Positions 16,850 to 29,408 of a stretch of 35,974 nucleotides of DNA are shown piece by piece; the first letter of the stretch is position 1; the number at the start of each line of letters is the position of its first letter. A program made the position numbers and the translations under genes. The notes under the pieces were generated by a model. That model saw only the letters and a program-made list of their open reading frames with translations, searched no databases and was not told where the DNA came from. The DNA lies in contig CALIZB010000159.1 of NCBI GenBank assembly GCA_938028625.1, positions 1 through 35,974 on the forward strand, written 5' to 3'. The DNA is from an uncultured Bacteroidia bacterium. Lineage in GTDB: Bacteria > Bacteroidota > Bacteroidia > JANWVE01.

Positions 16850-17368
16850 TTAACAAAAAAATTTAGGAGGAGGAGAAATTAAAGGCAAACTTAAATCTTG
16901 TATTTTGTATTCAAAAGAGTAGTAACTATATGAACTGCTGAACGTAATAAAAGAGTATATTATTCCATTTATACAGTACTCTTTCCCTTCAAATTTTGGA
17001 TTGATTTTACTTTTTTCTGATTTTTCTTGGCTATTCTGTATAGTTTCAGAGAGGTTTTTTCGCAGTTTATGTTCTTTTTTATCTAAGTAAGCTGTGAGAT
17101 ATAAAAGTCCTTCACTTTGGGATATGCTCACAATATCGTACCATTCGTTTTGCCAAATAAACTCTTTTTGATTGATACGAATAAAGTTTTTATCTTGAGT
17201 AGAGATAACAAGCTGTTTAATATGTTTTGGATTTTTGTGACTCACTTTACGTTGGATAGTTTGATGGTGTATACTTAATTGTAGTAAAGCTATGGCTGTA
17301 TGGATAAAAATATAAAATATCCATACAGATAAAGTGAAATAGGCTATGATTTTTGAGTAATCAAACAT
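16850..17368 (-). CDS. Small inner-membrane protein, probably linked to the TonB receptor
   Basis: 172 residues. One N-terminal membrane helix (about 8-32) is followed by a mostly extramembrane part. The central segment reads KEFIWQNEWYDIVSIS, then a Leu/Tyr strand and LDKKEHKL. From memory this matches a set of uncharacterised Bacteroidota proteins with an EF-x-x-x-G-x-MYDIV ... D-K-E pattern and a PPPK tail, often found beside TonB receptors; here the end is PPPKFFC. This is the reason to group it with the receptor 159 bp downstream rather than with the cytoskeletal-type cluster upstream. It has its own -7 box 7 bp before the ATG. Function unknown. Confidence 0.7.
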   Translation of the reverse strand: MFDYSKIIAYFTLSVWIFYIFIHTAIALLQLSIHHQTIQRKVSHKNPKHIKQLVISTQDKNFIRINQKEFIWQNEWYDIVSISQSEGLLYLTAYLDKKEHKLRKNLSETIQNSQEKSEKSKINPKFEGKEYCINGIIYSFITFSSSYSYYSFEYKIQDLSLPLISPPPKFFC

Positions 17369-17427: not shown

Positions 17428-18177
17428 TTATACTTTTTTTAATACTTTTTTTATCTCTTGAATTTTTTTATTGCATGCTTCAATCTGTTTTTTTAACTGT
17501 TGTATTGAAGCATTTTCTATATTTACTTTTTCCTTTATCTCTTTTTTAGATGGCTCTTCTGCTTCTTTTAGAGGTGTTTTGGTTTCTTTTTCCACTCGCT
17601 GTCTTATACCCTTCATATAGAATACAAAAAAAGAAAACAAGAGAGAGACAAAAGCTACACCTATAATACCCCAGGTTAGACCATCAAAATTTTTGAAGTA
17701 ACTATGTTTTTTACTACTTTCCTCATTTTTTTGTTCTTCCTGGCTATCAGAATTTCTCTGTTGTAATATGTTTCTAATTTCATGCTCAAAATTTTTTTCA
17801 ATTTTATATTTGTATTTTATTAGATTATCATACCTATCATTTTTGTTAAAGTTGTCTATATCAATAACTTTGCTGTCATCCCAATTTAGAGTAAATATTT
17901 GAACATAGTCTTTTATAGTACGTATTTTTTGTATATCTTTTGCTTCATAATCTATGGCTTTTGCAAATCTCTTAATTTGATATTCAGCTATTTCATCATT
18001 CTTTGCTAAACTTTCCATTCGTACCTTCCAGTATTGAGTAGCTTTTTTTAAGGCATCAGGATTAGGATAATCATTCACATCTTGAGCTAATATAAACTCA
18101 ATAGAAGAGAAAAAAAGGATTATACAAATAGATGTTAATGTTCTAAATAAAAGGTTAGGCAAAGAAATATTATGCAT
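17428..18177 (-). CDS. Membrane-anchored coiled-coil protein, paralogue of the gene at 20722-21849
   Basis: 249 residues. Signal peptide 1-31 (ends IEFILAQ), extracytoplasmic helical domain about 36-140, acidic linker, one membrane helix (about 167-190) and a charged cytoplasmic tail with a coiled coil at 225-249. The extracytoplasmic domain is plainly homologous to that of the 375-residue protein: both have PDALKKAT or PEALKKAT, then YWK..M..L.KNDE, then IR.IK.YV.IFTL.WD. It lacks the C-terminal domain of its paralogue. It is the last gene of the cluster, 117 bp after the MotB/ZorB-like gene, with its own promoter box. Function unknown; homology to a gene beside the motor pair suggests a role in the same machine. 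Confidence 0.8.
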   Translation of the reverse strand: MHNISLPNLLFRTLTSICIILFFSSIEFILAQDVNDYPNPDALKKATQYWKVRMESLAKNDEIAEYQIKRFAKAIDYEAKDIQKIRTIKDYVQIFTLNWDDSKVIDIDNFNKNDRYDNLIKYKYKIEKNFEHEIRNILQQRNSDSQEEQKNEESSKKHSYFKNFDGLTWGIIGVAFVSLLFSFFVFYMKGIRQRVEKETKTPLKEAEEPSKKEIKEKVNIENASIQQLKKQIEACNKKIQEIKKVLKKV

Positions 18178-18294: not shown

Positions 18295-18978
18295 CTATTT
18301 TTTATCATTGAAAAACTCATTGTAGCTAATATAAGGTGTAAGATATACTATAATTTTTTGGTCATCTTCAGGTCGTGTATAGCTGTTTAATCTTCCCCAA
18401 CCACGTTTATCTTCTCCACTTCCAACGATTTGAATTTTGCAGGTAAGTTCTCTATTGTGCCTGTCAATTTTTTCCCTCAAATCATAATTATCATACCAAA
18501 TTTTGTACACTTCTAATGCTCTATTGTAGCTTAATTGATCATTAAGCTTATAACCATCTTTAGATGCCATACCTTCAATAATAAGCATATATTGAGAGTT
18601 TTTATATTTCGTAGTTAATTTTTGTATCATATTGAATAGTTTATTGCCTACGGATAGCAAATATCCTATATCATCAGAGTTTTTTATGCGATGGTCAGCG
18701 TAACCGAATTTAATTTGTCTTTTGAGTTCAAAACGTCTATACTTATTGTTATATTTTAGTTCCCTTGAACTCTCTAATTCTTTCATATCATTTTCTATGT
18801 TTCTCATAATGCTATCCCTATATTCAACTTGCTTTTTTCTTTGATTAATCTCTTTTATTTTTTTTTGGTTATTGATATAAAAGATAACAAACAGCACTAA
18901 TGAAATAAAAAACATGCTCGTCATAAAGTCGGAATAACCAATCCAAAAAGTATGTTCATGCTTAGTTGACTTTATCAT
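18295..18978 (-). CDS. MotB/ZorB-like stator protein with OmpA-like domain
   Basis: 227 residues. The short cytoplasmic N-terminus leads straight into a single membrane helix, FWIGYSDFMTSMFFISL and onward (11-34). This matches the MotB/ZorB pattern W-x-x-x-x-ADFMTAM, and Asp17 sits at the position of the ion-path aspartate. A helical linker (40-90) follows. The OmpA-like domain (about 100-220) has LIIEGMASKDG, then the core N-DQLSYNRALEVYKIW and IVGSGEDKRGWGR; the usual late NRR segment is replaced by EDDQKIIVYL. Such domains hold peptidoglycan so that the partner rotates or moves against it. It lies 25 bp after the MotA/ZorA-like gene, as expected for such a pair. Confidence is high for the family and low for the process served. 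Confidence 0.88.
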   Translation of the reverse strand: MIKSTKHEHTFWIGYSDFMTSMFFISLVLFVIFYINNQKKIKEINQRKKQVEYRDSIMRNIENDMKELESSRELKYNNKYRRFELKRQIKFGYADHRIKNSDDIGYLLSVGNKLFNMIQKLTTKYKNSQYMLIIEGMASKDGYKLNDQLSYNRALEVYKIWYDNYDLREKIDRHNRELTCKIQIVGSGEDKRGWGRLNSYTRPEDDQKIIVYLTPYISYNEFFNDKK

Positions 18979-19003: not shown

Positions 19004-20725
19004 TTAATTATGATTTATATTATTTTTATCATTATCGTTATTATCATCCATAGAATATTTACTTAACATAGTTTTTATTTTTTTATTGGATATTGGAAGT
19101 AATGTTTTAGCTTTTTCAATTTGGACTTCATTTTGTAAAAGTAGTAATTCTTTTATTTTTATGATTTCTTCTAATTGCATAATTAGTTGTTTATTCAGTA
19201 GAATTTGAGTTTCACTAATAGGTTCTAAATATTGTAGGTTCTGTATAGAATAAGCAGAGTGTTCTTTTTTCAAGAAATTTGTCATTTCTGCTTCCTCTTC
19301 TTTTAGAACTTGTAATCTTCTTTCAATAAACTCAGACATTTTCTTAAACTCTTTCTCTACGTTTTGTAGAGTTTCAGGTATGATATTATTAAGTTTATTA
19401 AGCGTTTCTACCATTTCTTGTTTGGTATTAGATACGTCTTGTTGATATTTAGAGCTTATTTCTTGATATATCGCTATAACTTGACTATAAGTTTTCTCGT
19501 ATTCCGCGCTTAGATTATTCATAAATTTTGTAAAAGTTTCATTTGACACCCTCATCATAACTTTATGAGTGTTTGACAGTTCTTCAATTTCTTTCAATTG
19601 TGTATTTATGAATTCTATAATACCTTCTACAGCGACTATTCTTTTATCTAGATGATTAGCTATTTCATGGATTCTACCAGTTGATATCAAAGTTTTATCT
19701 AATACCTCTACTATACGACTTGTTGTTTTAAGCATATCATTTAGATTATCTATGTATGCTGTGAATTTGTCAAATTTTTCAAGAGCAAGTGTGAGTTTAG
19801 ACATTATGTTGAGATTAGCCTGTGTAATATCACTGATTTTAGTATTATTGATAGTATTGATGAGTTCAGCTTGTTTTTCTATCGTTGAGTAGGTTTTGTC
19901 TACAACTTTATTGATATTATCACTACTTTTTTGAAAATAATCAGCGTTTTTATTTGCTACTTCAAAAAATCTTTTTGTGTTTTGGTCAAATTCACTATTA
20001 AACTGTAATAAGCTACGTTGTAGTTGTGTAAATGTATCTGTCATGCTTTCATTGATTACAGGCATAATTTCTATTTGAAGCAGTGAAACAAGGTCATTTT
20101 TATTTTTTTCTTGTGTATGAATAGCTTTTGGTAAAAGCATATAAGCTAATATAGTGGTAAACACTAAACCTAACCCACTTGTAAACATGGTATATCCGAC
20201 CTCTTGAAGAAATCTCTGAACATTATCTTCAACTAAGAATTGAACAAGTTCGCCATATATAAAGCTAACAACAATGCATGTTATTGTACCTATCAAACCT
20301 AGGTATAATGGAGCATAAATGTAAGTATATGCTTCTTCTCGTAATTCGTTTAATTTTCTTTCAATTAAACTATTTATAATGTTAAACTCTGCTATGGAGT
20401 TATGATTACGTACTAAGTAGATATTTATGTCATTTATGAGTTTTTGAAAGTATTCTGAACTTTCGTGCTGTTGCTCGAGCAAATGTATCTCTACTGTATC
20501 CAGTAAATCTTTATTGCTATGAGCAACTTCTTGATACTGGTTTATGTTAGTGATAATGTCAGGAATCTTATCGTGTACAAGGTCTATCTTCAAAACTATG
20601 TATTTTTTTATGAGTATATTATCACTATCAGGAATAAAGTTTTTGAGTTTTATTATTGAGTTATTAGAGATTAGTAAAGCTATAAGTTGAAAAATACAAA
20701 TGAAAATTATTATGTAAGTTATCAT
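19004..20725 (-). CDS. MotA/TolQ/ExbB-superfamily channel protein with long coiled-coil tail (ZorA-like)
   Basis: 573 residues. Membrane helix 1 at 3-19, a cytoplasmic helical stretch (20-135), helix 2 at about 137-160 with LGLIGTITC (equivalent to the GLLGTV of ExbB/TolQ) and helix 3 at about 178-199 with TSGLGLVFTTILAY (the TGLGL-type pore helix). From 205 to the end is almost continuous helix with heptad character, low in Pro and Gly, ending in an Asn/Asp-rich tail. A pore module with a cytoplasmic tail of roughly 370 residues is the architecture of ZorA of Zorya systems, not of MotA, GldL or ExbB. It overlaps the preceding gene by 4 bp (ATGA) and precedes the MotB/ZorB-like gene, so the two should form an ion-driven motor unit. 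Confidence 0.87.
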   Translation of the reverse strand: MITYIIIFICIFQLIALLISNNSIIKLKNFIPDSDNILIKKYIVLKIDLVHDKIPDIITNINQYQEVAHSNKDLLDTVEIHLLEQQHESSEYFQKLINDINIYLVRNHNSIAEFNIINSLIERKLNELREEAYTYIYAPLYLGLIGTITCIVVSFIYGELVQFLVEDNVQRFLQEVGYTMFTSGLGLVFTTILAYMLLPKAIHTQEKNKNDLVSLLQIEIMPVINESMTDTFTQLQRSLLQFNSEFDQNTKRFFEVANKNADYFQKSSDNINKVVDKTYSTIEKQAELINTINNTKISDITQANLNIMSKLTLALEKFDKFTAYIDNLNDMLKTTSRIVEVLDKTLISTGRIHEIANHLDKRIVAVEGIIEFINTQLKEIEELSNTHKVMMRVSNETFTKFMNNLSAEYEKTYSQVIAIYQEISSKYQQDVSNTKQEMVETLNKLNNIIPETLQNVEKEFKKMSEFIERRLQVLKEEEAEMTNFLKKEHSAYSIQNLQYLEPISETQILLNKQLIMQLEEIIKIKELLLLQNEVQIEKAKTLLPISNKKIKTMLSKYSMDDNNDNDKNNINHN

Positions 20726-21849
20726 GATTTTTTTTCATTAAAATAAAGTGTTATTTTTTTAGTTACAATCCATTTATCATCTTGTAATTGTACTTCGCCT
20801 TCCTCAGCATGAGATAGCTTGTTGGTATCATACTCTTTCCATCCGTATTTTTGGACTAAATTATTCATGAGTGTTTTATCATGAAAGGTAATAATAGTGT
20901 TTATATTATCACGGTATAAGCTAAGAGTGCCTTTCTTACCATCTTTTGTAAATATAACATAGCAGGTGTCTTCATCAGCAGATAGCTTATGATTTTTATG
21001 GTTTATACCTTCTTGATCAATGCTTGGAATACCATAATAATAAAAAGTACTATCATTGCTTGGCTTTTTTTCTTGTATGCTAACTTGTTTTGATATTTCT
21101 ATTTGATTTTCCTCTGTTTTTTTCATGTTTTCAAGTCTTTCTAGTTTCTTTTGTATATTTTGTATATCTTGTAAGATTTTGTTTTCCGACTCTTGTTGCG
21201 GGGGTATTTTTTGAATATTATCATAACTTGCATTTTTTTGACTTTTTTGCCGTTTAACTTGTATGTAAGCAAGTAAAGAAAAAACAAGTGCAGTAATAGC
21301 TATGCCTATGGTTAAGTAGAATAATAGGTTTGTGGAGAGTGTAGATTTTTCATTCTTTTTTTTATTCTCTGTTTTGGTCTCATCAGTTTTATTTTGTTCA
21401 ACTTTTATATCTTCTGATTTATTATCAACTTTTTCCTTTTTTAGTATTTTGTTAATTGTATCTTTGAGTTCATTGAGTTCATTGGTAATTTTATTTTTGT
21501 AGTCTTTTAGACTTTTGTAGTTATTGTTGAATTTATCCGCATCTTTGATTTTATTTTTATCCCAGTCTAGTGTAAATATTGCAACATATTCTTTTATGGG
21601 GCGTATTTCATTTTCTGGTTTTGTTTCTTCTTCTCGTTTTTTTGCTAATTGACCAATCTCTTTTTTAAGATTTTCATCATTTTTTACTAAGTTATTCATG
21701 TGTTCTTTCCAGTATTCTGTAGCTTTTTTCAGTGCTTCGGGGGTAGGGCAATCATCAGATTTTTCCTGTGCAAAAACATTGGTTGACAGGATAAGGAAAG
21801 ATACTACTCCAGCACACAATAAGACTCTATATAAGAATAAACGCATCAT
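20722..21849 (-). CDS. Membrane-anchored coiled-coil protein with extra C-terminal domain
   Basis: 375 residues from ATG 21849 (ATG 21846 also possible; a TTG at 21855 is less likely). Signal peptide to about 28 (TNVFAQ), extracytoplasmic helical domain about 34-137 homologous to the protein at 17428-18177, a Lys/Glu-rich linker, one membrane helix (about 173-198), coiled coil (about 220-248) and a C-terminal globular domain (about 268-373: beta-rich, with TKDGKKGTLSLY and DDKWIVTKKITLYF). So part faces the periplasm and the larger part the cytoplasm, where it could contact the tail of the ZorA-like protein or the actin/tubulin-like proteins. The stop overlaps the next start (ATGA), implying translational coupling to the motor gene. 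No family recognised. Confidence 0.82.
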   Translation of the reverse strand: MMRLFLYRVLLCAGVVSFLILSTNVFAQEKSDDCPTPEALKKATEYWKEHMNNLVKNDENLKKEIGQLAKKREEETKPENEIRPIKEYVAIFTLDWDKNKIKDADKFNNNYKSLKDYKNKITNELNELKDTINKILKKEKVDNKSEDIKVEQNKTDETKTENKKKNEKSTLSTNLLFYLTIGIAITALVFSLLAYIQVKRQKSQKNASYDNIQKIPPQQESENKILQDIQNIQKKLERLENMKKTEENQIEISKQVSIQEKKPSNDSTFYYYGIPSIDQEGINHKNHKLSADEDTCYVIFTKDGKKGTLSLYRDNINTIITFHDKTLMNNLVQKYGWKEYDTNKLSHAEEGEVQLQDDKWIVTKKITLYFNEKKS

Positions 21850-21892
21850 AAGCAATATTAAATTGAATTTTACTTTAATTTAAGGTTTGAGT

Positions 21893-24800
21893 TTAGTTAT
21901 TTTTATCTACGCGGTATCTATGATTAAGCCAATCTTGGATAATTCCCACGGGTATGTAGAAAAAGGCACTCTCGTCCATAAATTTATTTTCATCTAGCTC
22001 TTCTATTTTGCTTCTATAGTCATATCCAGTACTTATGAAGTCTCCGTAATATGGAATATTCTCTTTTATAGCATTCATGAAGCGTGCTACAATTGATTGA
22101 TTGATACCAAATAAATCTTGAAAATCAAGTTTTTGATGTAATGCCTCAAAAAAAGCATGGTATTTTTCCATTACCTTAATATATTCTTCAACAATTCCCT
22201 CTTCTTTGAACTCTTTCCATTGTAAAACTTCCTTACTCTCTATACCTGAGTAAGATTTTTTAATATCTTTTATGTCAGGTAGTTCTTCATCTTCAATATA
22301 AAGCCCTCCTTTAGCTGTAATTTCCTTGGGTATCTCGTTTTCTAGTATAACTTTGATAGGGTCCTTACTTTCTGGGTAAAAGTGCCTAAATATCTCAGAT
22401 ACATATTTTTCTCTAATTGTAGAAGATGAGGTCAGAATATTGAATGATTTAGAACCTGTACCACTGAAAAATATCTCAGAAGGAGGATTTATAGCATTAA
22501 ATTTAATTAGGTCTGCAATATGATAGATAATGTTAGTATAGTAGTATAAAAGAATAATTTTGAATTCAGGATCGTTTTTTAAGAGTTCTGAATAATTGAA
22601 TTCAGAGTCTTGGTTTTGTTTCTCTAAGGCGAATAATAAATTATTGAACTCAGTGCAATTATTTTCAGTTCTCTTAATGATTTCCAGATATTCTTTTGAA
22701 ATTTTTTTATCTAACTCAGTAGAATAGTATTTTGTTAAGAGATTGGAATTAGGTTTAGTATTATATCCAGAACCGAATATTATATTTCCTGCAAAATGAA
22801 AAGATGAGAAAAGAATAGGTTGGTTACCTTTGAACACATTTATGTCTGTAGTTCCCCCACCAATATCCACAGATACAGCAGGCTTTATAGAGCCGCTTTT
22901 TATCTTATTAGTATATTTGTAAAAATAAAAAGGTGCAAAGGACTCGGGAATACTTTTGCTTACAACCTCTTTCGAGAGGTGTCTTTTTATTGATTTGCTC
23001 CATATTTCTTCTAATTCTGTTCTTTGGTTCATTGTCATAACAGAAGGATAAAACCATATAATGTTAATACGGTCAGGTGAGTAATTTTTCTTAACTGCTA
23101 TGGATTTGATGTGAATTACAATCTCTTCTATGAATTTTTCTCTGTATTGTTTATTTTCTATGTTGTTATCTAGCCATTTTAGATTAGTTTTGTATCCTTC
23201 GCCGCCATATTTATGTTTTTGAGTATGGTACATCCATGCAATATTAAAACCTGATAGTGCTTGCATTTGTTTGCTTTCTGTAATTGCAGGACTTTTTTGT
23301 ATAACTGTTCTTGCAGGAAAGTGATATTCTTTTGTCTCTTTGGACTGGTTAGATAAAAAGAAGTGTAAATTTTGTGCAAGGTACTGGTCAGATAGTTCAA
23401 GTTTATCAGAGAAATCTTTAGCCATAAGAATTAAGCTACATTCTACAATTTCTTGGTAGGTAAGAGATTTAATATTAGCATTTTTACCTTCTTTGTATTC
23501 AATATGTGTGTTAGTTGTGCCGAAGTCTACGGAAAAATAGATTTTTTCCTCACCTCCCTCTGCACTGCGCCATTTAGGAATAACAATCCCACTGGCATTA
23601 TTTTCTATTAAATGTATTTTTACATAATCAAAGTCTTTTTCATGATTAAGAATATAATAAGTAATGCCCGCAAATTGATTTTCTGATTTACCTTTCTCTG
23701 TATGACATATTTCATATATTGGTTCTACGGTTTCTGTTGTTTCTTTGTAGAAGTAAGCCTTTATTTTTTGTCTATAGCGTTTATCTGCATCTATAAGTTG
23801 TACTCTATATTCTCCATTAGAAAGCTTAAATCCAGGGTAAATAGCAAGATTGACTTTTACAGATATAATAGCACCTTTATTTTCTTTTTCAGAAATATTT
23901 GGTTCTATATCTTTATGATAAGTTCGCATATAAGCAATAATTTTATCTTTCTGAATAGGAATCTTTAAATGAACTTCCACGGATTCTCCCACTCCTTCTT
24001 TTATTTCAAACATTTTTTTATCATTTTTTAGCGTTCTGTTAAGGTCGTCAATGGTAAAGTATTCGAAGAATGTAGATTTGAGGGGTATTAAATAACTTAC
24101 CTTATTATCAGATGATTTAGATACAAGATTGCCGTCTAAATAACTTTCTTTGTTAATCGGGTAGGGTAAGGAAATAAGATAAGGTTCCAAAAAATCGTCT
24201 ATCGTAAGATAAGGATAGAGGTGTGTTGTACCTGGTAATATTCTTTTCGATGTATCTGAAATGGGCGCCTTATAGGGTACAGTTATTTTTTCAGGGTCCC
24301 ATACATCTTCTACGTACATCAAAGAATCATTAAATCTTTCAACAGGCAAAACAAGTGGCAGTTTAGTTTTTGTAACATCTACTTTTCTGCTAGGTTGTAT
24401 TATAAAATCGCTATTCCTTATTTTACTGTCTTGACTTTCTATTCTTTGTTTAGGCAAATATACATCTTTAATAGGTTTTACATAATCATTTTCATTCTCA
24501 CCACATAGATAGTCAAATAAATCACCAAAACTATTTTCGTTATAATCGTAGATTTCACTATATAGGTTGTTATTAAAGTTTTTTATTTTTTCCTCTAAAC
24601 ATCTTTCTAAGTAATTCCACAGTAGCCTTGTAGAGCCTAATTCATGTAGTATTCTATATTTTTTGTATAGAGCATAAAAAGATTTGATAAATTGTTCTTC
24701 GCGCTCGTAAATTTGACAATAATCATCATCAAATAAGGTATCCTTACCAAAAGATATATCACGTAAACCTTGTTTTTGCAGATTATTAGGTGAAGGAAAG

Positions 24801-25312
24801 AATAAAGTTGCTGGTGAGGTACCACCTACAATAACATTGTCTATTTTAAGAATGTACAAGTCTTCTAACAAGTGAAAATTATAGGCTTTTTCATCTTGTG
24901 TTAAGTATAATTCAAGGGTCTTGGCAATTAGATAATGTTCTTTTGAGGCTTTTTTTAATCTTTCCATCTCTGTTTTTCTATTCCATCTGATAATCTTAAC
25001 CTTATGCTTATTAGATAGAAAGTCTTTGTTAAAAAAGGCTTGAGCAACATCTAGCATATCAGATATTGTCTTGTGGTATATAGTTTTACCATCTATGGGG
25101 AACCTTTTATCCTTAAACTTATTGAGTGCATCTACAACAATAGCCATGTTAGCAAAAGGTGAAGGAATAGAAGTAATTTTGTATAAGCTAGAACCTCCTG
25201 ACGGGTCCTTTATGTCATTTATTTCACTAGGTGTGTAACAATTAGGACTTTCTGTCCATCCTTCAATATTTTCAGTTCCTTTTTCAGTAATTCTAAATAT
25301 GATTTTGTTCAT
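21893..25312 (-). CDS. Actin/Hsp70-fold ATPase with large N-terminal extension
   Basis: 1139 residues, cytoplasmic, no signal peptide. The C-terminal half is an actin/Hsp70-type ATPase: phosphate-1 loop YFSVDFGTTNTHIEYK (592-607), a connecting segment INIIWFYPSVMT (749-760), phosphate-2 loop AVSVDIGGGTTDINVF (812-827), adenosine motif SEIFFSGTGSKSFNIL (945-960) and a late KEITAKGGLYI (996-1006). Residues 1-590 match nothing I know; they include a GGTSPATLFFPSPN segment (163-176) and several beta-rich stretches. Residues 1010-1139 are helical. It may be a distant relative of SrfB-like Hsp70-fold proteins, but I cannot confirm that. It lies 17 bp after the tubulin-like gene, so the two products should be made together. 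Confidence 0.87.
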   Translation of the reverse strand: MNKIIFRITEKGTENIEGWTESPNCYTPSEINDIKDPSGGSSLYKITSIPSPFANMAIVVDALNKFKDKRFPIDGKTIYHKTISDMLDVAQAFFNKDFLSNKHKVKIIRWNRKTEMERLKKASKEHYLIAKTLELYLTQDEKAYNFHLLEDLYILKIDNVIVGGTSPATLFFPSPNNLQKQGLRDISFGKDTLFDDDYCQIYEREEQFIKSFYALYKKYRILHELGSTRLLWNYLERCLEEKIKNFNNNLYSEIYDYNENSFGDLFDYLCGENENDYVKPIKDVYLPKQRIESQDSKIRNSDFIIQPSRKVDVTKTKLPLVLPVERFNDSLMYVEDVWDPEKITVPYKAPISDTSKRILPGTTHLYPYLTIDDFLEPYLISLPYPINKESYLDGNLVSKSSDNKVSYLIPLKSTFFEYFTIDDLNRTLKNDKKMFEIKEGVGESVEVHLKIPIQKDKIIAYMRTYHKDIEPNISEKENKGAIISVKVNLAIYPGFKLSNGEYRVQLIDADKRYRQKIKAYFYKETTETVEPIYEICHTEKGKSENQFAGITYYILNHEKDFDYVKIHLIENNASGIVIPKWRSAEGGEEKIYFSVDFGTTNTHIEYKEGKNANIKSLTYQEIVECSLILMAKDFSDKLELSDQYLAQNLHFFLSNQSKETKEYHFPARTVIQKSPAITESKQMQALSGFNIAWMYHTQKHKYGGEGYKTNLKWLDNNIENKQYREKFIEEIVIHIKSIAVKKNYSPDRINIIWFYPSVMTMNQRTELEEIWSKSIKRHLSKEVVSKSIPESFAPFYFYKYTNKIKSGSIKPAVSVDIGGGTTDINVFKGNQPILFSSFHFAGNIIFGSGYNTKPNSNLLTKYYSTELDKKISKEYLEIIKRTENNCTEFNNLLFALEKQNQDSEFNYSELLKNDPEFKIILLYYYTNIIYHIADLIKFNAINPPSEIFFSGTGSKSFNILTSSSTIREKYVSEIFRHFYPESKDPIKVILENEIPKEITAKGGLYIEDEELPDIKDIKKSYSGIESKEVLQWKEFKEEGIVEEYIKVMEKYHAFFEALHQKLDFQDLFGINQSIVARFMNAIKENIPYYGDFISTGYDYRSKIEELDENKFMDESAFFYIPVGIIQDWLNHRYRVDKNN

Positions 25313-25329
25313 AGTAGTAGGTATTATTT

Positions 25330-26826
25330 TTATCCTTTGTAATCTAATTGTTTATCTTGTATAATTTGCGCAGTAGCTCTATACATTAGCGAAATCAAAC
25401 GTTTGAAGTTAGATATGTCTTTTGAAAGTTCTTTTGACGACTTATTTAAGATATCATCAAAAGACTCGTAGTCTTTCATTCGTCTAAAAGAAAACAAACT
25501 AGAGCTTTTATGTGGAGTTATAGATTCTATTGATGAGAAAACTTCTTCTTTATTCTCTTCATCAATTTTGAAAGGTTTGAAAGCAACATGGTTCTCTGCC
25601 ATTTCCCTTAAATATTGATAATAAAGTTCTATGAATTCTTTCATGTCTTGGTATACAGGGTCGTTTGTGTTTATTTTTGTTTCGTCGAACCAAGGTGATT
25701 TTTTGTTAGATATTTTAGGTAATCTATCTGTAAAATAGCGTGTCATTAAGAAAAATTGTATGAGTTCATTTTGTATTTTTTTTCTGTCTTTATGGGATAA
25801 ACAAGTAAGAGTTAAATATGGTGTAGAAGTGCTATATGAGGCTGTACTATATTCTTTTTTACTCACTTCTTCATTTGTTGTAAAATCTGTATCCATAAAA
25901 TCAAAGATAGATAAGGCACTAGCAAACTCTATAAAATGAGCTTTATTTTCTTGTGTTCTTCCACCTTCTGAATTTTCATAGGTAGCACCGTTAGTATATC
26001 CTATGTAATAAATAGAGTTGAGTTGTTTGGTATGAATTATATTATTGTAGTAGTATTCAAGTGCAGATTTTGTTTTAGAAATAAAGGTGTTACTATTTAT
26101 TTTACTACTTTCTGTATTTTCTAGGTTAAAATAAGGAAGCACACTAATAGCACCGATAACAGCATCTTTAATATAGTTATGATTAGGTATTTTTTCATCT
26201 GGATTACGAAGGTTTTTCAATAATGTAGGAAATCCTGACGCACCTGTACCTCCAAAAATAGAACTTATAATAAATATGCGGTCACTTGAATTGAAAGAGC
26301 TAGCAAATAATTTAAAGTATTCCGCGTCAGAAAATTGATTAAGTACTATGCTTCCTATATTAGGGTTGCCTTTAAAGCCTACTTCAAGATTAGTTTCTAA
26401 ATTATCTTCTGAAAATAGCAAGCGAAGTAATGCTTGCGAACTTTCGGTCATTGTATTAAGATTGAGAAAATCTTTGAGGTTTTTATTTTGTATGTCCTGT
26501 ATCGTTTGGTGGAAACTGTTTTCTTCTATTGTAATAAGAGTTTTTAATCCATCTATATCGCCAGCAAAAGTTTGTATATTTTTTAATTTAAGCCTAAAAA
26601 AATTATTATCAGTGTGTTCTACATTATTTCGTATTCTATTGTAAAGTTTAATGAGTCTTATTGTTTTATTTAAATCTCCGTTACTGTTATCAGGGTCAAT
26701 AATGATAGGAATAATTGTATCAGAGTCATTTGAGTCAAATTTTACGCCTGCGGCAGCTAAAAATACAAGATGCTTAATTACTCTGGCTCCTGTACCTCCA
26801 ATGCCAAATAAAAATAACTTTGCCAT
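25330..26826 (-). CDS. Tubulin/FtsZ-superfamily GTPase-like protein
   Basis: 498 residues, no signal peptide. The N-terminus FLFGIGGTGARVIKHL (6-21) is the first nucleotide loop, followed by strand IIPIIIDPDNSNGD with an acidic ribose-contact position (about 38-51). IISSIFGGTGASGFP (186-200) is the tubulin signature loop (GGGTGSG-like). ENKAHFIEFASALSIFDF (293-310) resembles the central-helix/T7 region of divergent FtsZ-like families, in which acidic residues complete the GTPase site between subunits. The C-terminal 190 residues are helical and replace the usual FtsZ C-terminal domain and tail. This fits the divergent Tubulin_2/FtsZ-like families rather than FtsZ itself. It sits between a small membrane protein and the actin-fold ATPase, within one probable operon. 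Confidence 0.85.
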   Translation of the reverse strand: MAKLFLFGIGGTGARVIKHLVFLAAAGVKFDSNDSDTIIPIIIDPDNSNGDLNKTIRLIKLYNRIRNNVEHTDNNFFRLKLKNIQTFAGDIDGLKTLITIEENSFHQTIQDIQNKNLKDFLNLNTMTESSQALLRLLFSEDNLETNLEVGFKGNPNIGSIVLNQFSDAEYFKLFASSFNSSDRIFIISSIFGGTGASGFPTLLKNLRNPDEKIPNHNYIKDAVIGAISVLPYFNLENTESSKINSNTFISKTKSALEYYYNNIIHTKQLNSIYYIGYTNGATYENSEGGRTQENKAHFIEFASALSIFDFMDTDFTTNEEVSKKEYSTASYSTSTPYLTLTCLSHKDRKKIQNELIQFFLMTRYFTDRLPKISNKKSPWFDETKINTNDPVYQDMKEFIELYYQYLREMAENHVAFKPFKIDEENKEEVFSSIESITPHKSSSLFSFRRMKDYESFDDILNKSSKELSKDISNFKRLISLMYRATAQIIQDKQLDYKG

Positions 26827-26854: not shown

Positions 26855-27292
26855 TTAAAAAGGTATTTTTCTATGATTGTTGCTAACAGATTTGAATAAC
26901 AATGCAAATATGAAGTATAAAATCAAATAGTAAAAAAGAACTGTAAATGCAAAGCCCCATGTGTCTCCATTTGTTATTTGCAGTTCTTTGCAATACATTT
27001 TATTAGTAATATCACTGCTTACCTTTAGAAAAGACCATAAGAAAGGCAACAAACCAGTTACAATTCCAACCATAGACCATTTACCTATACTAGTATACCT
27101 AGGCATATCTAATCCTTTGTAGTACAAAAAACTAGCTAAAAAAGAAACAAAAAGTATAACGAGTCCAATAGTATTGTAGAATGCGCCTGCGTCATAGGCT
27201 TTACATCTCATGTTAAAACCACGAAGATGCTCTCCTAAATCCTTACTATATAGGGACATTAACTCAAATATTGTTGCAAAAAGGTCTGTCAT
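26855..27292 (-). CDS. Three-helix inner-membrane protein
   Basis: 145 residues from ATG 27292, 4 bp after the upstream stop; an in-frame TTG at 27304 would overlap that gene by 8 bp and is less likely. An amphipathic N-terminal part (MTDLFATIFELMSLYSKDLG) with two Cys (30 and 101 overall) is followed by three membrane helices at about 40-58, 70-90 and 112-135, and a short basic tail. It has no recognisable family or catalytic motif. Encoded just before the tubulin-like gene, it is a candidate membrane anchor or adaptor for it, but this is inferred only from position. Confidence 0.75.
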   Translation of the reverse strand: MTDLFATIFELMSLYSKDLGEHLRGFNMRCKAYDAGAFYNTIGLVILFVSFLASFLYYKGLDMPRYTSIGKWSMVGIVTGLLPFLWSFLKVSSDITNKMYCKELQITNGDTWGFAFTVLFYYLILYFIFALLFKSVSNNHRKIPF

Positions 27293-27296
27293 ATGC

Positions 27297-28673
27297 TTAA
27301 TCAATAATAGTTAGTTTAAATAAAGTTTGCATGTTCCTGTTATTTTTTGCTAAATTATATATTAGTTCATAAAGTCCAAAAGTTTTTGTTTTTTCTTTTT
27401 CTAAATCATTGATATTAACAGAGTTATTTTCTATCCATTTTGGAAGTTCATTTATTTTAATACTAACTGTGAGATTGGTAGGAATAGGTTCTTCGCTCGT
27501 TATGATAAAATAATACTTATGCTTTTCGTTTTCTTTTTCTAACCGAATTTCTTTAATTGTATATTTTGGTTCAGACAACTGGTAATTTTTTTGGTTAGAT
27601 AAATAAGACTCACCATACAACACTTCAAGATTTTCCATTCCTAAGACTTCCAGAGTAAATTTTATTTGAGTAGGTTTTTTTATCTTTATTTTATTTTTCT
27701 CTTTTTTTTCTATCTCTACACCTTGAATATTATTTCTTCCTTGAAGTATTCTTGTATTTATAGATAAATCATTTATGCTACTGATAGAAATAAATTCTCC
27801 TATGCTCTCTTGATGTAAAAAATTCATTTTTTTAAGTTTTATTATTTGTTCAGGTTGTCCAATAAATAGCATATAAAAAGGACGTTGTATATTACTTAAC
27901 TGTGTTTTTTGATTATTACTATACCAAAAGTATCCATTAAAATCTACATTATAGCCAACAAGATAAAAACTTTTATTCTTTATATCTATTCCTTTAAGAA
28001 ATTCTAATACGTTTTTGGAGTTATCTTTATGGTTAGAGGTTATGAGGTCAGACGCTAGAACAACAACATTCTCTTTATCTGCTTTTTCAGCAATCTTGGG
28101 AATAAGCTTGTGAAATAAAGAACTTAATCCATTAGACTGTTTCAGTTCATCAGACAATTTGTCTTCTATGTATTCACTCAATTGACTTTTATTGTTAAAA
28201 CTATGTTGTTGAATACATTCTCCTTCAGAATTTAGTAAGCATATAAAAGTTTTATTTTTTTCAATAAGTTTAGTTACCTTATCAACTAAAATTCCATTCA
28301 TGGATTTAGACATGTCCATTTTTTCTTTCTTAATATAACCTTTGGTAAGGTCGCTACCGTCAATATAGATGTGATAATTTGTATTGATAGTTTCCCATAA
28401 GATTGTACAACCACATTCCGATTTAAGGTATTTAATAAACTCAACGCTATCTATCTCACCTGCTTTCTGACCTTGCCAAGGCTCATTAGTTATTTTCTTA
28501 TTTTTGCTGAATACCTTTTTGAACTCTTCATAATCTTGTATGGTTACTTGTTTATTATCACAGATGTTTTCAAGATTGCTATTCCATTTATTGCTATCTC
28601 CTCTCTGGCATGACACAGCTAGTAGTGACACAGCAACCCATAAATAGTGTTTGAAAGACGCTATTATTTTCAT
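27297..28673 (-). CDS. Lipoprotein with degenerate von Willebrand A-like domain
   Basis: 458 residues. Lipoprotein signal with Cys22 (SLLAVSC). A conserved-looking segment follows (45-95, including CGC at 87-89). From about 98 a vWA-like Rossmann fold appears: strand NYHIYIDGSDLTKGYIKK, in which DGSD sits where active vWA domains have DxSxS, then ENVVVLASDLITSN (201-214), the typical V-V-x-x-SD strand, and RPFYMLFIG (264-272). The MIDAS is therefore partial: D105 and S107 remain but the second Ser is missing. The rest (about 310-458) is beta-rich, probably Ig-like. It is likely to face the periplasm. Its stop is 4 bp from the next start. FtsZ-like/vWA pairings are known in other bacteria (Makarova and Koonin 2010, from memory). 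Confidence 0.78.
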   Translation of the reverse strand: MKIIASFKHYLWVAVSLLAVSCQRGDSNKWNSNLENICDNKQVTIQDYEEFKKVFSKNKKITNEPWQGQKAGEIDSVEFIKYLKSECGCTILWETINTNYHIYIDGSDLTKGYIKKEKMDMSKSMNGILVDKVTKLIEKNKTFICLLNSEGECIQQHSFNNKSQLSEYIEDKLSDELKQSNGLSSLFHKLIPKIAEKADKENVVVLASDLITSNHKDNSKNVLEFLKGIDIKNKSFYLVGYNVDFNGYFWYSNNQKTQLSNIQRPFYMLFIGQPEQIIKLKKMNFLHQESIGEFISISSINDLSINTRILQGRNNIQGVEIEKKEKNKIKIKKPTQIKFTLEVLGMENLEVLYGESYLSNQKNYQLSEPKYTIKEIRLEKENEKHKYYFIITSEEPIPTNLTVSIKINELPKWIENNSVNINDLEKEKTKTFGLYELIYNLAKNNRNMQTLFKLTIID

Positions 28674-28728: not shown

Positions 28729-29391
28729 TCAAAACAATCTAATTACATTATTTTGATAATCTATTTCTACTCTTCCAAATCTAGATAGAGCACTCTGTCC
28801 GAGTAGTAATGGGGCACGCGCATTCTTAATTACAATTGCGTCTACATCACGTAGAATTTTATTTCCTACTTCTACTTGTCTTAATGTTATTTTTTTTGCG
28901 GTCAATGTATTTCCTGAAGCATCTTTATAGGTAACTTGCTCTTTTATATCACTTTGCTTAATACGCCTTTTTTTTGTCAATAACTGAAACTCTAACTCTG
29001 ATATAGAAATATCTGACGCACCTGTATCAAAGACAAAATCTAATTCTAATCCATTTATCCGTATAGGAATTTCATAAACTCCACTTTCTGTCTTGAACAT
29101 AGGTATCTCAACATATTCATTATTGTTCTGATCACGTTTTACAAGAACTTTTCTTCGTGTTTTTTTCTCCTCGTCATTATTATCATTCTCTTCTGTGTCA
29201 TCATCTTTTTCAATGATTACTTTGTTTAGTTCTTTTTCCTTTTTTATTTTTATATCATCATTATTTTCTTCTGCTTCCTGATGCTCTAACCGCCTTCCGG
29301 ATTTGCTACAACCCGCAGAAACAAATACTAAAAAGTAAGAAACTAATACAAGTAGTTGTAATAAAAAAATTACCTTTTTCATAAGATACAT
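28729..29391 (-). CDS. Lipoprotein with retroviral-type (clan AA) aspartic protease domain
   Basis: 220 residues from ATG 29391; ATG 29382 (MKKVIFLL) is an equally workable start, and a TTG at 29403 lies inside the promoter box. Lipoprotein signal with Cys28 (FVSAGC), then a very acidic, flexible stretch (about 35-85, rich in Asp, Glu and Asn). The protease domain covers about 92-220: VYEIPIRINGLELDFVFDTGAS with the catalytic Asp122 in DTGAS, and LLLGQSALSRFG near 195-206, as in the single-domain bacterial pepsin-retropepsin family that works as a dimer. It is the first gene of the cluster, 55 bp before the vWA-like lipoprotein. It may process a cluster protein in the periplasm, but no substrate is evident. 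Confidence 0.85.
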   Translation of the reverse strand: MYLMKKVIFLLQLLVLVSYFLVFVSAGCSKSGRRLEHQEAEENNDDIKIKKEKELNKVIIEKDDDTEENDNNDEEKKTRRKVLVKRDQNNNEYVEIPMFKTESGVYEIPIRINGLELDFVFDTGASDISISELEFQLLTKKRRIKQSDIKEQVTYKDASGNTLTAKKITLRQVEVGNKILRDVDAIVIKNARAPLLLGQSALSRFGRVEIDYQNNVIRLF

Positions 29392-29400
29392 TATTTTCTG

Positions 29401-29408
29401 CAAAGCTA
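29401..29408 (-). promoter_or_regulatory. -7 box at the head of the cluster
   Basis: Reads TAGCTTTG on the minus strand, 9 bp before ATG 29391. It is the only clear box ahead of the eight tightly spaced genes that follow, so it may drive about 11 kb of transcript. No -33 element at the right distance was found. Confidence 0.45.

What the first reader, a model, noticed from the sequence alone, without database searches (positions are those of the whole stretch)
21893..26826. Actin-like and tubulin-like proteins encoded side by side
The two cytoskeletal NTPase superfamilies are adjacent with only 17 bp between them, so they are probably made together and in fixed ratio. Each has its nucleotide motifs but is otherwise far from FtsZ, FtsA, MreB or DnaK. 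FtsA-FtsZ is the familiar actin-tubulin partnership; this could be an independent one, with the membrane link supplied by the neighbouring small membrane protein.
Basis: partly seen in the sequence, partly recalled or inferred. Interest (0 to 1): 0.8.

Follow-up and report, generated by a model that had tools for sequence, protein, structure and literature searches.

The report
Paired tubulin–actin module with ion motor
A bacterial operon makes a tubulin-like and an actin-like protein side by side, a pairing kept across distant bacteria and once fused into a single protein, as part of an unstudied membrane machine that here also carries an ion-driven motor resembling one used in phage defence.

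Summary
Window 25330-26826(-) encodes a 498-aa tubulin-superfamily protein and 21893-25312(-) a 1139-aa protein with an actin/Hsp70-fold ATPase domain (residues 588-1016), 17 bp apart. Both folds were confirmed by motifs invariant in 16-18 divergent homologues and by AlphaFold2 models. The pairing is not accidental. In 395 genomes of the same class the actin occurs in 20, the tubulin in 21, and all 20 overlap; they lie side by side in 32 of 35 neighbourhoods. In a Syntrophomonadaceae MAG they are one 1660-aa polypeptide. The conserved unit is vWA-like lipoprotein, small membrane protein, tubulin, actin, membrane linker, found in Bacteroidota, cyanobacterial plasmids and Bacillota. In the window it continues into a ZorA/ZorB-like motor. 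The host has ordinary FtsZ and FtsA elsewhere, so this is a second, independent tubulin-actin partnership. The tubulin family and its vWA/OmpA neighbours were described in 2010 (FtsZl1); I found no paper describing the actin partner, the fusion or the motor. Best reading: a membrane-docked GTPase-ATPase co-complex that gates or loads a peptidoglycan-anchored motor, perhaps in envelope sensing or defence. Direct binding, polymerisation and function remain untested.

The parts
27297..28673 (-). vWA-like lipoprotein, 458 aa (core gene 1)
   Evidence: Invariant lipobox Cys22. MIDAS-like DGSDLTKGY aligned with DGSGSM in the Gloeothece homologue and ExSGSM in the consensus. Own HMM finds it in 26 of 35 related loci. 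No Pfam or PDB match by itself.
26855..27304 (-). Small inner-membrane protein, 149 aa, about 3 TM helices in most homologues (core gene 2)
   Evidence: Hydropathy. Between lipoprotein and tubulin in the conserved order. Overlaps the lipoprotein gene by 8 bp.
25330..26826 (-). Tubulin-superfamily protein, 498 aa (core gene 3)
   Evidence: Pfam Tubulin/Tubulin_2 about 6e-5; invariant GGTG loops; AF2 model matches CetZ/FtsZ/tubulin, Z up to 15.5.
21893..25312 (-). Actin/Hsp70-fold ATPase protein, 1139 aa; ATPase domain at residues about 588-1016, about 590-aa N-terminal region and C-terminal helical tail (core gene 4)
   Evidence: Invariant phosphate-1, phosphate-2 and adenosine motifs; AF2 model matches MreB/MamK/DnaK.
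20722..21855 (-). Membrane linker protein, 377 aa: signal peptide, one TM, charged/coiled segment (core gene 5)
   Evidence: Hydropathy; homologues downstream of the actin in 26 of 35 loci, in cyanobacterial plasmids and after the Syntrophomonadaceae fusion.
19004..20725 (-). ZorA-like motor subunit, 573 aa, 3 predicted TM helices plus long helical tail
   Evidence: PADLOC ZorA1 E 7.5e-10; family profile reaches TolQ 0.0046 and ZorA 8qyy 0.014 in PDB; overlaps the linker gene by 4 bp.
18295..18978 (-). ZorB/MotB-like peptidoglycan-binding stator subunit, 227 aa
   Evidence: PADLOC ZorB1 E 1.1e-16; PDB 8vvn MotB-related E 4e-13 and ZorB 8qyd E 2.5e-8; invariant channel Asp17 and OmpA-type LSYxRA motif.
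17428..18177 (-). Second, shorter linker paralogue, 249 aa
   Evidence: Same family as the 377-aa linker (HMM E 1.1e-57).
28729..29403 (-). Retropepsin-like aspartic protease lipoprotein, 224 aa (accessory)
   Evidence: TIGR02281 over cut-off, gag-asp_proteas 2.1e-16; homologues in the same operons in at least five other loci, next to ZorB or after the linker.

Best explanation
The two proteins are the cytoplasmic nucleotide-binding core of one trans-envelope machine. Shown by computation: a tubulin-superfamily protein and an actin/Hsp70-fold ATPase form an obligate genetic pair that is kept together across three phyla and is once a single polypeptide. They are encoded with a vWA-like lipoprotein, a small multi-helix membrane protein and a membrane linker. 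In this organism the same operon encodes a ZorA/ZorB-like ion-driven motor with a peptidoglycan-binding arm. Inferred: tubulin and actin bind each other, as a hetero-complex or short co-polymer, and dock on the inner membrane through the small membrane protein and the linker. GTP and ATP state then control whether the ZorA tail, and so ion flow and motor torque, is engaged; the ZorB arm and the lipoprotein report on or act on the peptidoglycan and periplasm. More speculative: the physiological output is response to envelope insult, such as phage DNA entry, since some relatives add lipoprotein proteases and lipoprotein nucleases. My estimates: obligate functional partners 0.9; direct physical complex 0.75; acts together with the motor in this organism 0.65; defence or envelope-stress role 0.4.
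For: Folds and motifs. Co-occurrence 20/20 among 395 genomes. Adjacent in 32 of 35 loci, median gap 16.5 bp, tubulin-actin distance correlation r 0.90, the highest of all pairs in the core. Natural fusion, 1660 aa, with tubulin at residues 1-433 (E 8e-62) and actin at 898-1629 (E 7e-42) and no start codon between them in frame. Same gene order on cyanobacterial plasmids. Motor. Separate FtsZ and FtsA in the genome. ZorB peptidoglycan binding, ion flow and ZorA tail are needed in Zorya (PMC11890865). Lipoprotein protease and SNase next to ZorAB-type loci.
Against: No complex was modelled (single-chain prediction only). The ZorAB motor is present in only about half of the related loci (16 of 35 ZorA, 14 of 35 ZorB; some contigs are cut), so the core can work without it. 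Only one fusion was found. Co-occurrence and co-divergence are not corrected for shared ancestry. Immediate flanks are ordinary housekeeping genes, not defence islands.
Confidence: 0.6

Rival explanations
1. Cytoskeletal filament pair: the tubulin and the actin-like protein each or together polymerise into dynamic filaments that position or move the membrane complex.
For: Both belong to superfamilies with cytomotive members, and nucleotide motifs are invariant. The tubulin fold covers GTPase and central helix regions.
Against: The catalytic T7 acid is not evident in this clade: no invariant acid between F310 and N412. The C-terminal part is barely covered by FtsZ or tubulin matches. The actin domain is embedded between a 590-aa N-terminal region and a helical tail, which would limit ordinary actin-filament packing. 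FtsZl1 proteins were also suspected to filament by a novel mechanism or not at all (PMC2875224).
Confidence: 0.25
2. Anti-phage system with Zorya logic: the ZorAB-like motor senses the cell-wall insult, and the tubulin-actin pair with protease/nuclease lipoproteins replaces ZorC/D/E as effector.
For: ZorA/ZorB similarity; patchy presence (20 of 395 genomes, absent from one of three genomes of the genus); operon GC 29% against 36% and 33% in the flanks; plasmid copies; accessory SNase and protease lipoproteins; variable downstream modules.
Against: No ZorC, ZorD or ZorE; no hit of tubulin or actin to PADLOC. Flanks are housekeeping genes. Many relatives lack ZorAB. Nucleases are periplasmic lipoproteins and in a minority of loci; none is in this window.
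Confidence: 0.35
3. Membrane remodelling or vesicle formation, as Makarova and Koonin proposed for the FtsZl1/vWA/OmpA operons.
For: Same family and context type (tubulin, vWA, OmpA-like, membrane proteins; PMC2875224).
Against: That proposal rested on gene context alone and did not know of the actin partner or the motor; nothing found here points to membrane bending.
Confidence: 0.2
4. Independent neighbours: two unrelated NTPases that happen to lie side by side.
For: In one genome (G117) the tubulin and the actin are on different contigs.
Against: 20/20 co-occurrence, conserved order over three phyla, r 0.90, natural fusion.
Confidence: 0.03

Closest known systems
FtsZl1 / Tubulin_2 family (PF13809) with vWA and OmpA neighbours (Makarova and Koonin 2010, PMC2875224)
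   Same: Divergent tubulin-superfamily GTPase beside a vWA protein, membrane proteins and an OmpA-like protein; genome also has ordinary FtsZ; Bacteroides and cyanobacteria were among their examples.
   Different: [quoted passage not shown] their supplementary lists were not readable here). Typical FtsZl1 has a long coiled coil; this protein is 498 aa.
Zorya ZorA-ZorB motor (PMC11890865)
   Same: ZorA-like membrane protein with long cytoplasmic helical tail, ZorB-like subunit with channel Asp and peptidoglycan-binding domain.
   Different: No ZorC, ZorD or ZorE; the partner genes are a tubulin, an actin-fold ATPase, a vWA-like lipoprotein and linkers.
FtsA-FtsZ
   Same: Actin-fold protein paired with tubulin-fold protein, probably at the membrane.
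   Different: Neither protein reaches FtsA or FtsZ family cut-offs; the genome has its own FtsA and FtsZ elsewhere; different accessory genes and domain layout.
DO-GTPase/GAP1 conflict systems with tubulin or HSP70 (Kaur et al. 2020, PMC7159879)
   Same: Tubulin and Hsp70-fold proteins and vWA proteins appear in NTP-dependent multi-gene systems thought to act in conflicts.
   Different: There tubulin and HSP70 occur in separate themes next to DO-GTPase and GAP1, mostly in Firmicutes and Actinobacteria; no P-loop GTPase or GAP1 was detected here.

Membership tests
FtsZ/tubulin superfamily | Nucleotide loops T1 (GGxG) and T4 (GGTG[S/T/A]) | tested here: met
   G10GTG13 and F191GGTG195 invariant in 18 homologues
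FtsZ/tubulin superfamily | Tubulin GTPase fold | tested here: met
   AF2 model; CetZ 3zid Z 15.5 (222 aligned, 6.1 A), gamma-tubulin 8qv2 Z 15.3 (226, 3.6 A), B. subtilis FtsZ Z 14.8 (188, 2.9 A)
FtsZ/tubulin superfamily | Catalytic T7 acid (NxDxxD/E) | tested here: inconclusive
   No invariant acid after helix H7 in alignments, but that stretch aligns poorly and the structural equivalence was not mapped
FtsZl1 / Tubulin_2 PF13809 | Score above Pfam's curated cut-off | tested here: not met
   22.8 bits against 27; E 6.4e-05. Related, but outside the model's cut-off, so not filed as a member
FtsZl1 / Tubulin_2 PF13809 | Gene neighbourhood with vWA and OmpA-like proteins | tested here: met
   vWA-like lipoprotein upstream, OmpA/MotB-type protein downstream
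Actin/Hsp70 superfamily | Phosphate-1, phosphate-2 and adenosine motifs | tested here: met
   D596, G598, N601; D816, G818, G819, T821, D823; G951 invariant in 16 homologues
Actin/Hsp70 superfamily | Two-lobed ATPase fold | tested here: met
   Residues 588-1016: DnaK Z 12.2 (323 aligned, 5.0 A), MamK 11.7 (292, 4.6 A), MreB 11.5 (293, 4.0 A); Foldseek MreB5 E 7.5e-08
FtsA | Score above family cut-off | tested here: not met
   PF14450 17.2 bits against 31.8; TIGR01174 11.6 against 175.85
FtsZ | Score above family cut-off | tested here: not met
   TIGR00065 12.9 bits against 295.2
Zorya system | ZorA and ZorB homologues | tested here: met
   PADLOC ZorA1 7.5e-10, ZorB1 1.1e-16; below NCBIfam ZorB1 cut-off (38 against 400 bits), so homologous rather than members of that equivalog
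Zorya system | ZorC+ZorD or ZorE effector genes | tested here: not met
   No such hit for any operon protein
DO-GTPase/GAP1 systems | TRAFAC DO-GTPase and GAP1 protein | tested here: not met
   No P-loop GTPase or GAP1 domain found in the operon proteins
Polymerising cytoskeletal protein | Nucleotide-dependent filaments | not testable with these tools
   Needs purified proteins

The most novel reading that the evidence does not exclude
A new class of bacterial cell machine in which an actin-fold ATPase and a tubulin-fold GTPase form one heteromeric, even covalently fused, engine that couples two nucleotide cycles to a peptidoglycan-anchored ion-driven motor across the envelope.
Probability: 0.35. 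Interest if true: 0.92.

Novelty: new variant of a known kind. Interest (0 to 1): 0.75.

Why it matters
FtsA-FtsZ is the familiar actin-tubulin partnership in bacteria. A second one, evolutionarily separate, conserved over three phyla and present once as a natural fusion, shows that the two superfamilies have been joined more than once. It gives a direct experimental handle on how an ATP-driven and a GTP-driven protein can work as one unit. The link to a ZorAB-type motor would also show that such motors serve machines other than flagella, transport, gliding and Zorya. It adds an identifiable actin partner and motor to a tubulin family that has been without a function since 2010.

Tried and rejected
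Chance neighbours: rejected by co-occurrence, conserved order and fusion. Assembly artefact as the source of the fusion: no ATG/GTG/TTG in frame over residues 481-580, and no long alternative frame at the junction, so rejected as far as sequence alone allows; reads were not available. FtsA/FtsZ duplicates: family scores far below cut-offs, and true FtsA/FtsZ lie elsewhere. SrfB-like actin: considered from memory; no Pfam SrfB hit at E up to 1, not tested further. Phage origin: no match of either protein in 50,697 phage genomes; one IMG/VR contig (L080) carries the core genes but looks like a host fragment. Defence island: flanks scanned with PADLOC and Pfam gave mostly housekeeping families. 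Empty-site comparison in the sister genome without the system (G002): contigs too short. The 172-aa ORF at 16850-17368 was first counted with the operon and then dropped, because its homologue sits beside the TonB-receptor gene in G001 without the system. Fold of the actin protein's first 590 residues: not covered by any listed match, not tested alone.
Full report
What is there. The window is a whole 36-kb contig of a 2.9-Mb draft genome. On its minus strand an operon runs from 29403 down to 17428. In order of transcription it encodes: a retropepsin-like protease lipoprotein, a vWA-like lipoprotein, a small membrane protein, the tubulin-like protein, the actin-like protein, a membrane linker, a ZorA-like protein, a ZorB-like protein and a second linker. 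Gaps run from -8 to 117 bp, with 17 bp between tubulin and actin. Operon GC is 29%, against 36% and 33% in the flanks.

Tubulin. Single-sequence Pfam scores are modest (6e-05, below cut-off). Eighteen homologues of 19-57% identity keep the T1 and T4 nucleotide loops without exception. They also keep a Q292-x-N294-x-x-H297-x-x-E300 motif just before the helix at 298-312, which I take to be H7 (assignment by order of elements, inferred). The AF2 model matches CetZ, FtsZ and tubulin over residues 1-356 at Z 14-15.5. GTP binding is therefore likely. Hydrolysis is uncertain, because the T7 acid is not evident. The closest described family is FtsZl1/Tubulin_2 (PMC2875224; called FtsZ-like in PMC9871819).

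Actin. Sixteen homologues keep the phosphate-1, phosphate-2 and adenosine motifs, plus K712 and E790. From memory of Hsp70 numbering, these two could correspond to its catalytic K71 and E175; this is inference. Residues 588-1016 model as an actin/Hsp70 ATPase, tied between DnaK, MamK and MreB. About 590 residues precede it and a helical tail follows. The family cannot be narrowed to actin or Hsp70 with these data.

The pairing. In the same 395 genomes of the class, separate profile searches found the actin in 20 and the tubulin in 21. All 20 coincide, and the twenty-first tubulin is cut by a contig end (hypergeometric about 1e-32, not corrected for phylogeny). In 32 of 35 fetched neighbourhoods the two genes are neighbours in the order tubulin then actin, with a median gap of 16.5 bp; their distance matrices correlate at r 0.90. 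In one genome (G117) they lie on different contigs.

The fusion. In a Syntrophomonadaceae MAG (JAISDD010000105.1, locus L058) one 1660-aa ORF matches the tubulin profile at 1-433 (E 8e-62) and the actin profile at 898-1629 (E 7e-42). There is no start codon in frame around the junction and no open alternative frame. It sits in the same order: lipoprotein, membrane protein, fusion, linker-like membrane protein. This is Rosetta-stone evidence that the two proteins act together. It is a single example from a MAG.

The conserved unit and its variable tail. The core is lipoprotein, small membrane protein, tubulin, actin, linker. It is found in many Bacteroidota: Prevotella, Hymenobacter, Pedobacter, Maribacter, Christiangramia and others. 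It is also on plasmids of the cyanobacteria Gloeothece and Picosynechococcus. Downstream content varies: ZorA plus ZorB (the window and about half of the loci), a WG-repeat membrane protein, a protein kinase, two TerD proteins with an OmpA protein, TPR/GYF proteins, or zinc-ribbon proteins. ZorAB-type loci often add a protease lipoprotein (retropepsin- or trypsin-like) and a staphylococcal-nuclease lipoprotein.

The motor. The ZorB-like protein keeps the channel Asp and the peptidoglycan-binding LSYxRA motif; its profile reaches MotB-related 8vvn (E 4e-13) and ZorB 8qyd (E 2.5e-8). The ZorA-like protein has three predicted TM helices and a long helical tail, with weak but consistent links to ZorA and TolQ. 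In Zorya the peptidoglycan arm, ion flow and the tail are all needed (PMC11890865).

Mechanism. I favour a membrane-docked complex in which the tubulin and actin nucleotide states gate or load the motor. Shown: fold, motifs, obligate pairing, fusion, operon with motor. Inferred: direct contact, docking, gating, envelope-sensing output. Defence is plausible from the Zorya likeness, patchiness, plasmid copies and nuclease/protease additions. It is weakened by the absence of known effectors and by housekeeping flanks.

Known or new. The tubulin family and its vWA/OmpA context have been known since 2010 (PMC2875224). Kaur et al. 2020 (PMC7159879) place tubulins or HSP70s in other conflict systems, in separate themes. 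In the papers I could search (open-licence PMC only; supplementary files not readable) none describes the actin partner, the motor link or the fusion. I therefore file it as a new variant of a known kind, with a real chance that it proves a distinct class of machine.

Noticed in passing
L058:2442-7424 (JAISDD010000105.1, Syntrophomonadaceae MAG): Natural tubulin-actin fusion protein of 1660 aa in the same operon order as the window.
   Followed up: yes
L063, L081, L082 (plasmids of Gloeothece and Picosynechococcus): Same core of vWA-like lipoprotein, membrane protein, tubulin, actin on cyanobacterial plasmids, annotated almost entirely as hypothetical.
   Followed up: partly
L028:1951-2490, L029:2490-3053, L033:377-1060, L044:17842-18423, L053:17424-18032: Staphylococcal-nuclease-like lipoproteins, often with a retropepsin- or trypsin-like lipoprotein, near ZorA/ZorB-bearing copies; not in the window.
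   Followed up: partly
L040:2639-3858: Two TerD-domain genes plus an OmpA-domain gene downstream of a tubulin-actin pair, suggesting a link to Ter stress systems.
   Followed up: no
L026:1415-4210 and L024:9884-11986: Enlarged linker relatives: a 931-aa linker with a spectrin-like stretch, and a ZorA with an added linker-like domain (700 aa).
   Followed up: no
16850-17368: 172-aa membrane protein that belongs with the TonB-dependent receptor next door (homologue beside it in G001), not with the operon.
   Followed up: yes
L080 (IMG/VR contig IMGVR_UViG_3300034171_000222): A contig catalogued as viral carries the core genes; the pair is otherwise absent from phage genomes, so it is probably a host fragment.
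   Followed up: partly
window:21893-25312, protein residues 1-590: Large conserved N-terminal region of the actin-like protein (TSIPSPFAR, GGTSPxTLFF motifs) with no Pfam match; fold not identified.
   Followed up: no
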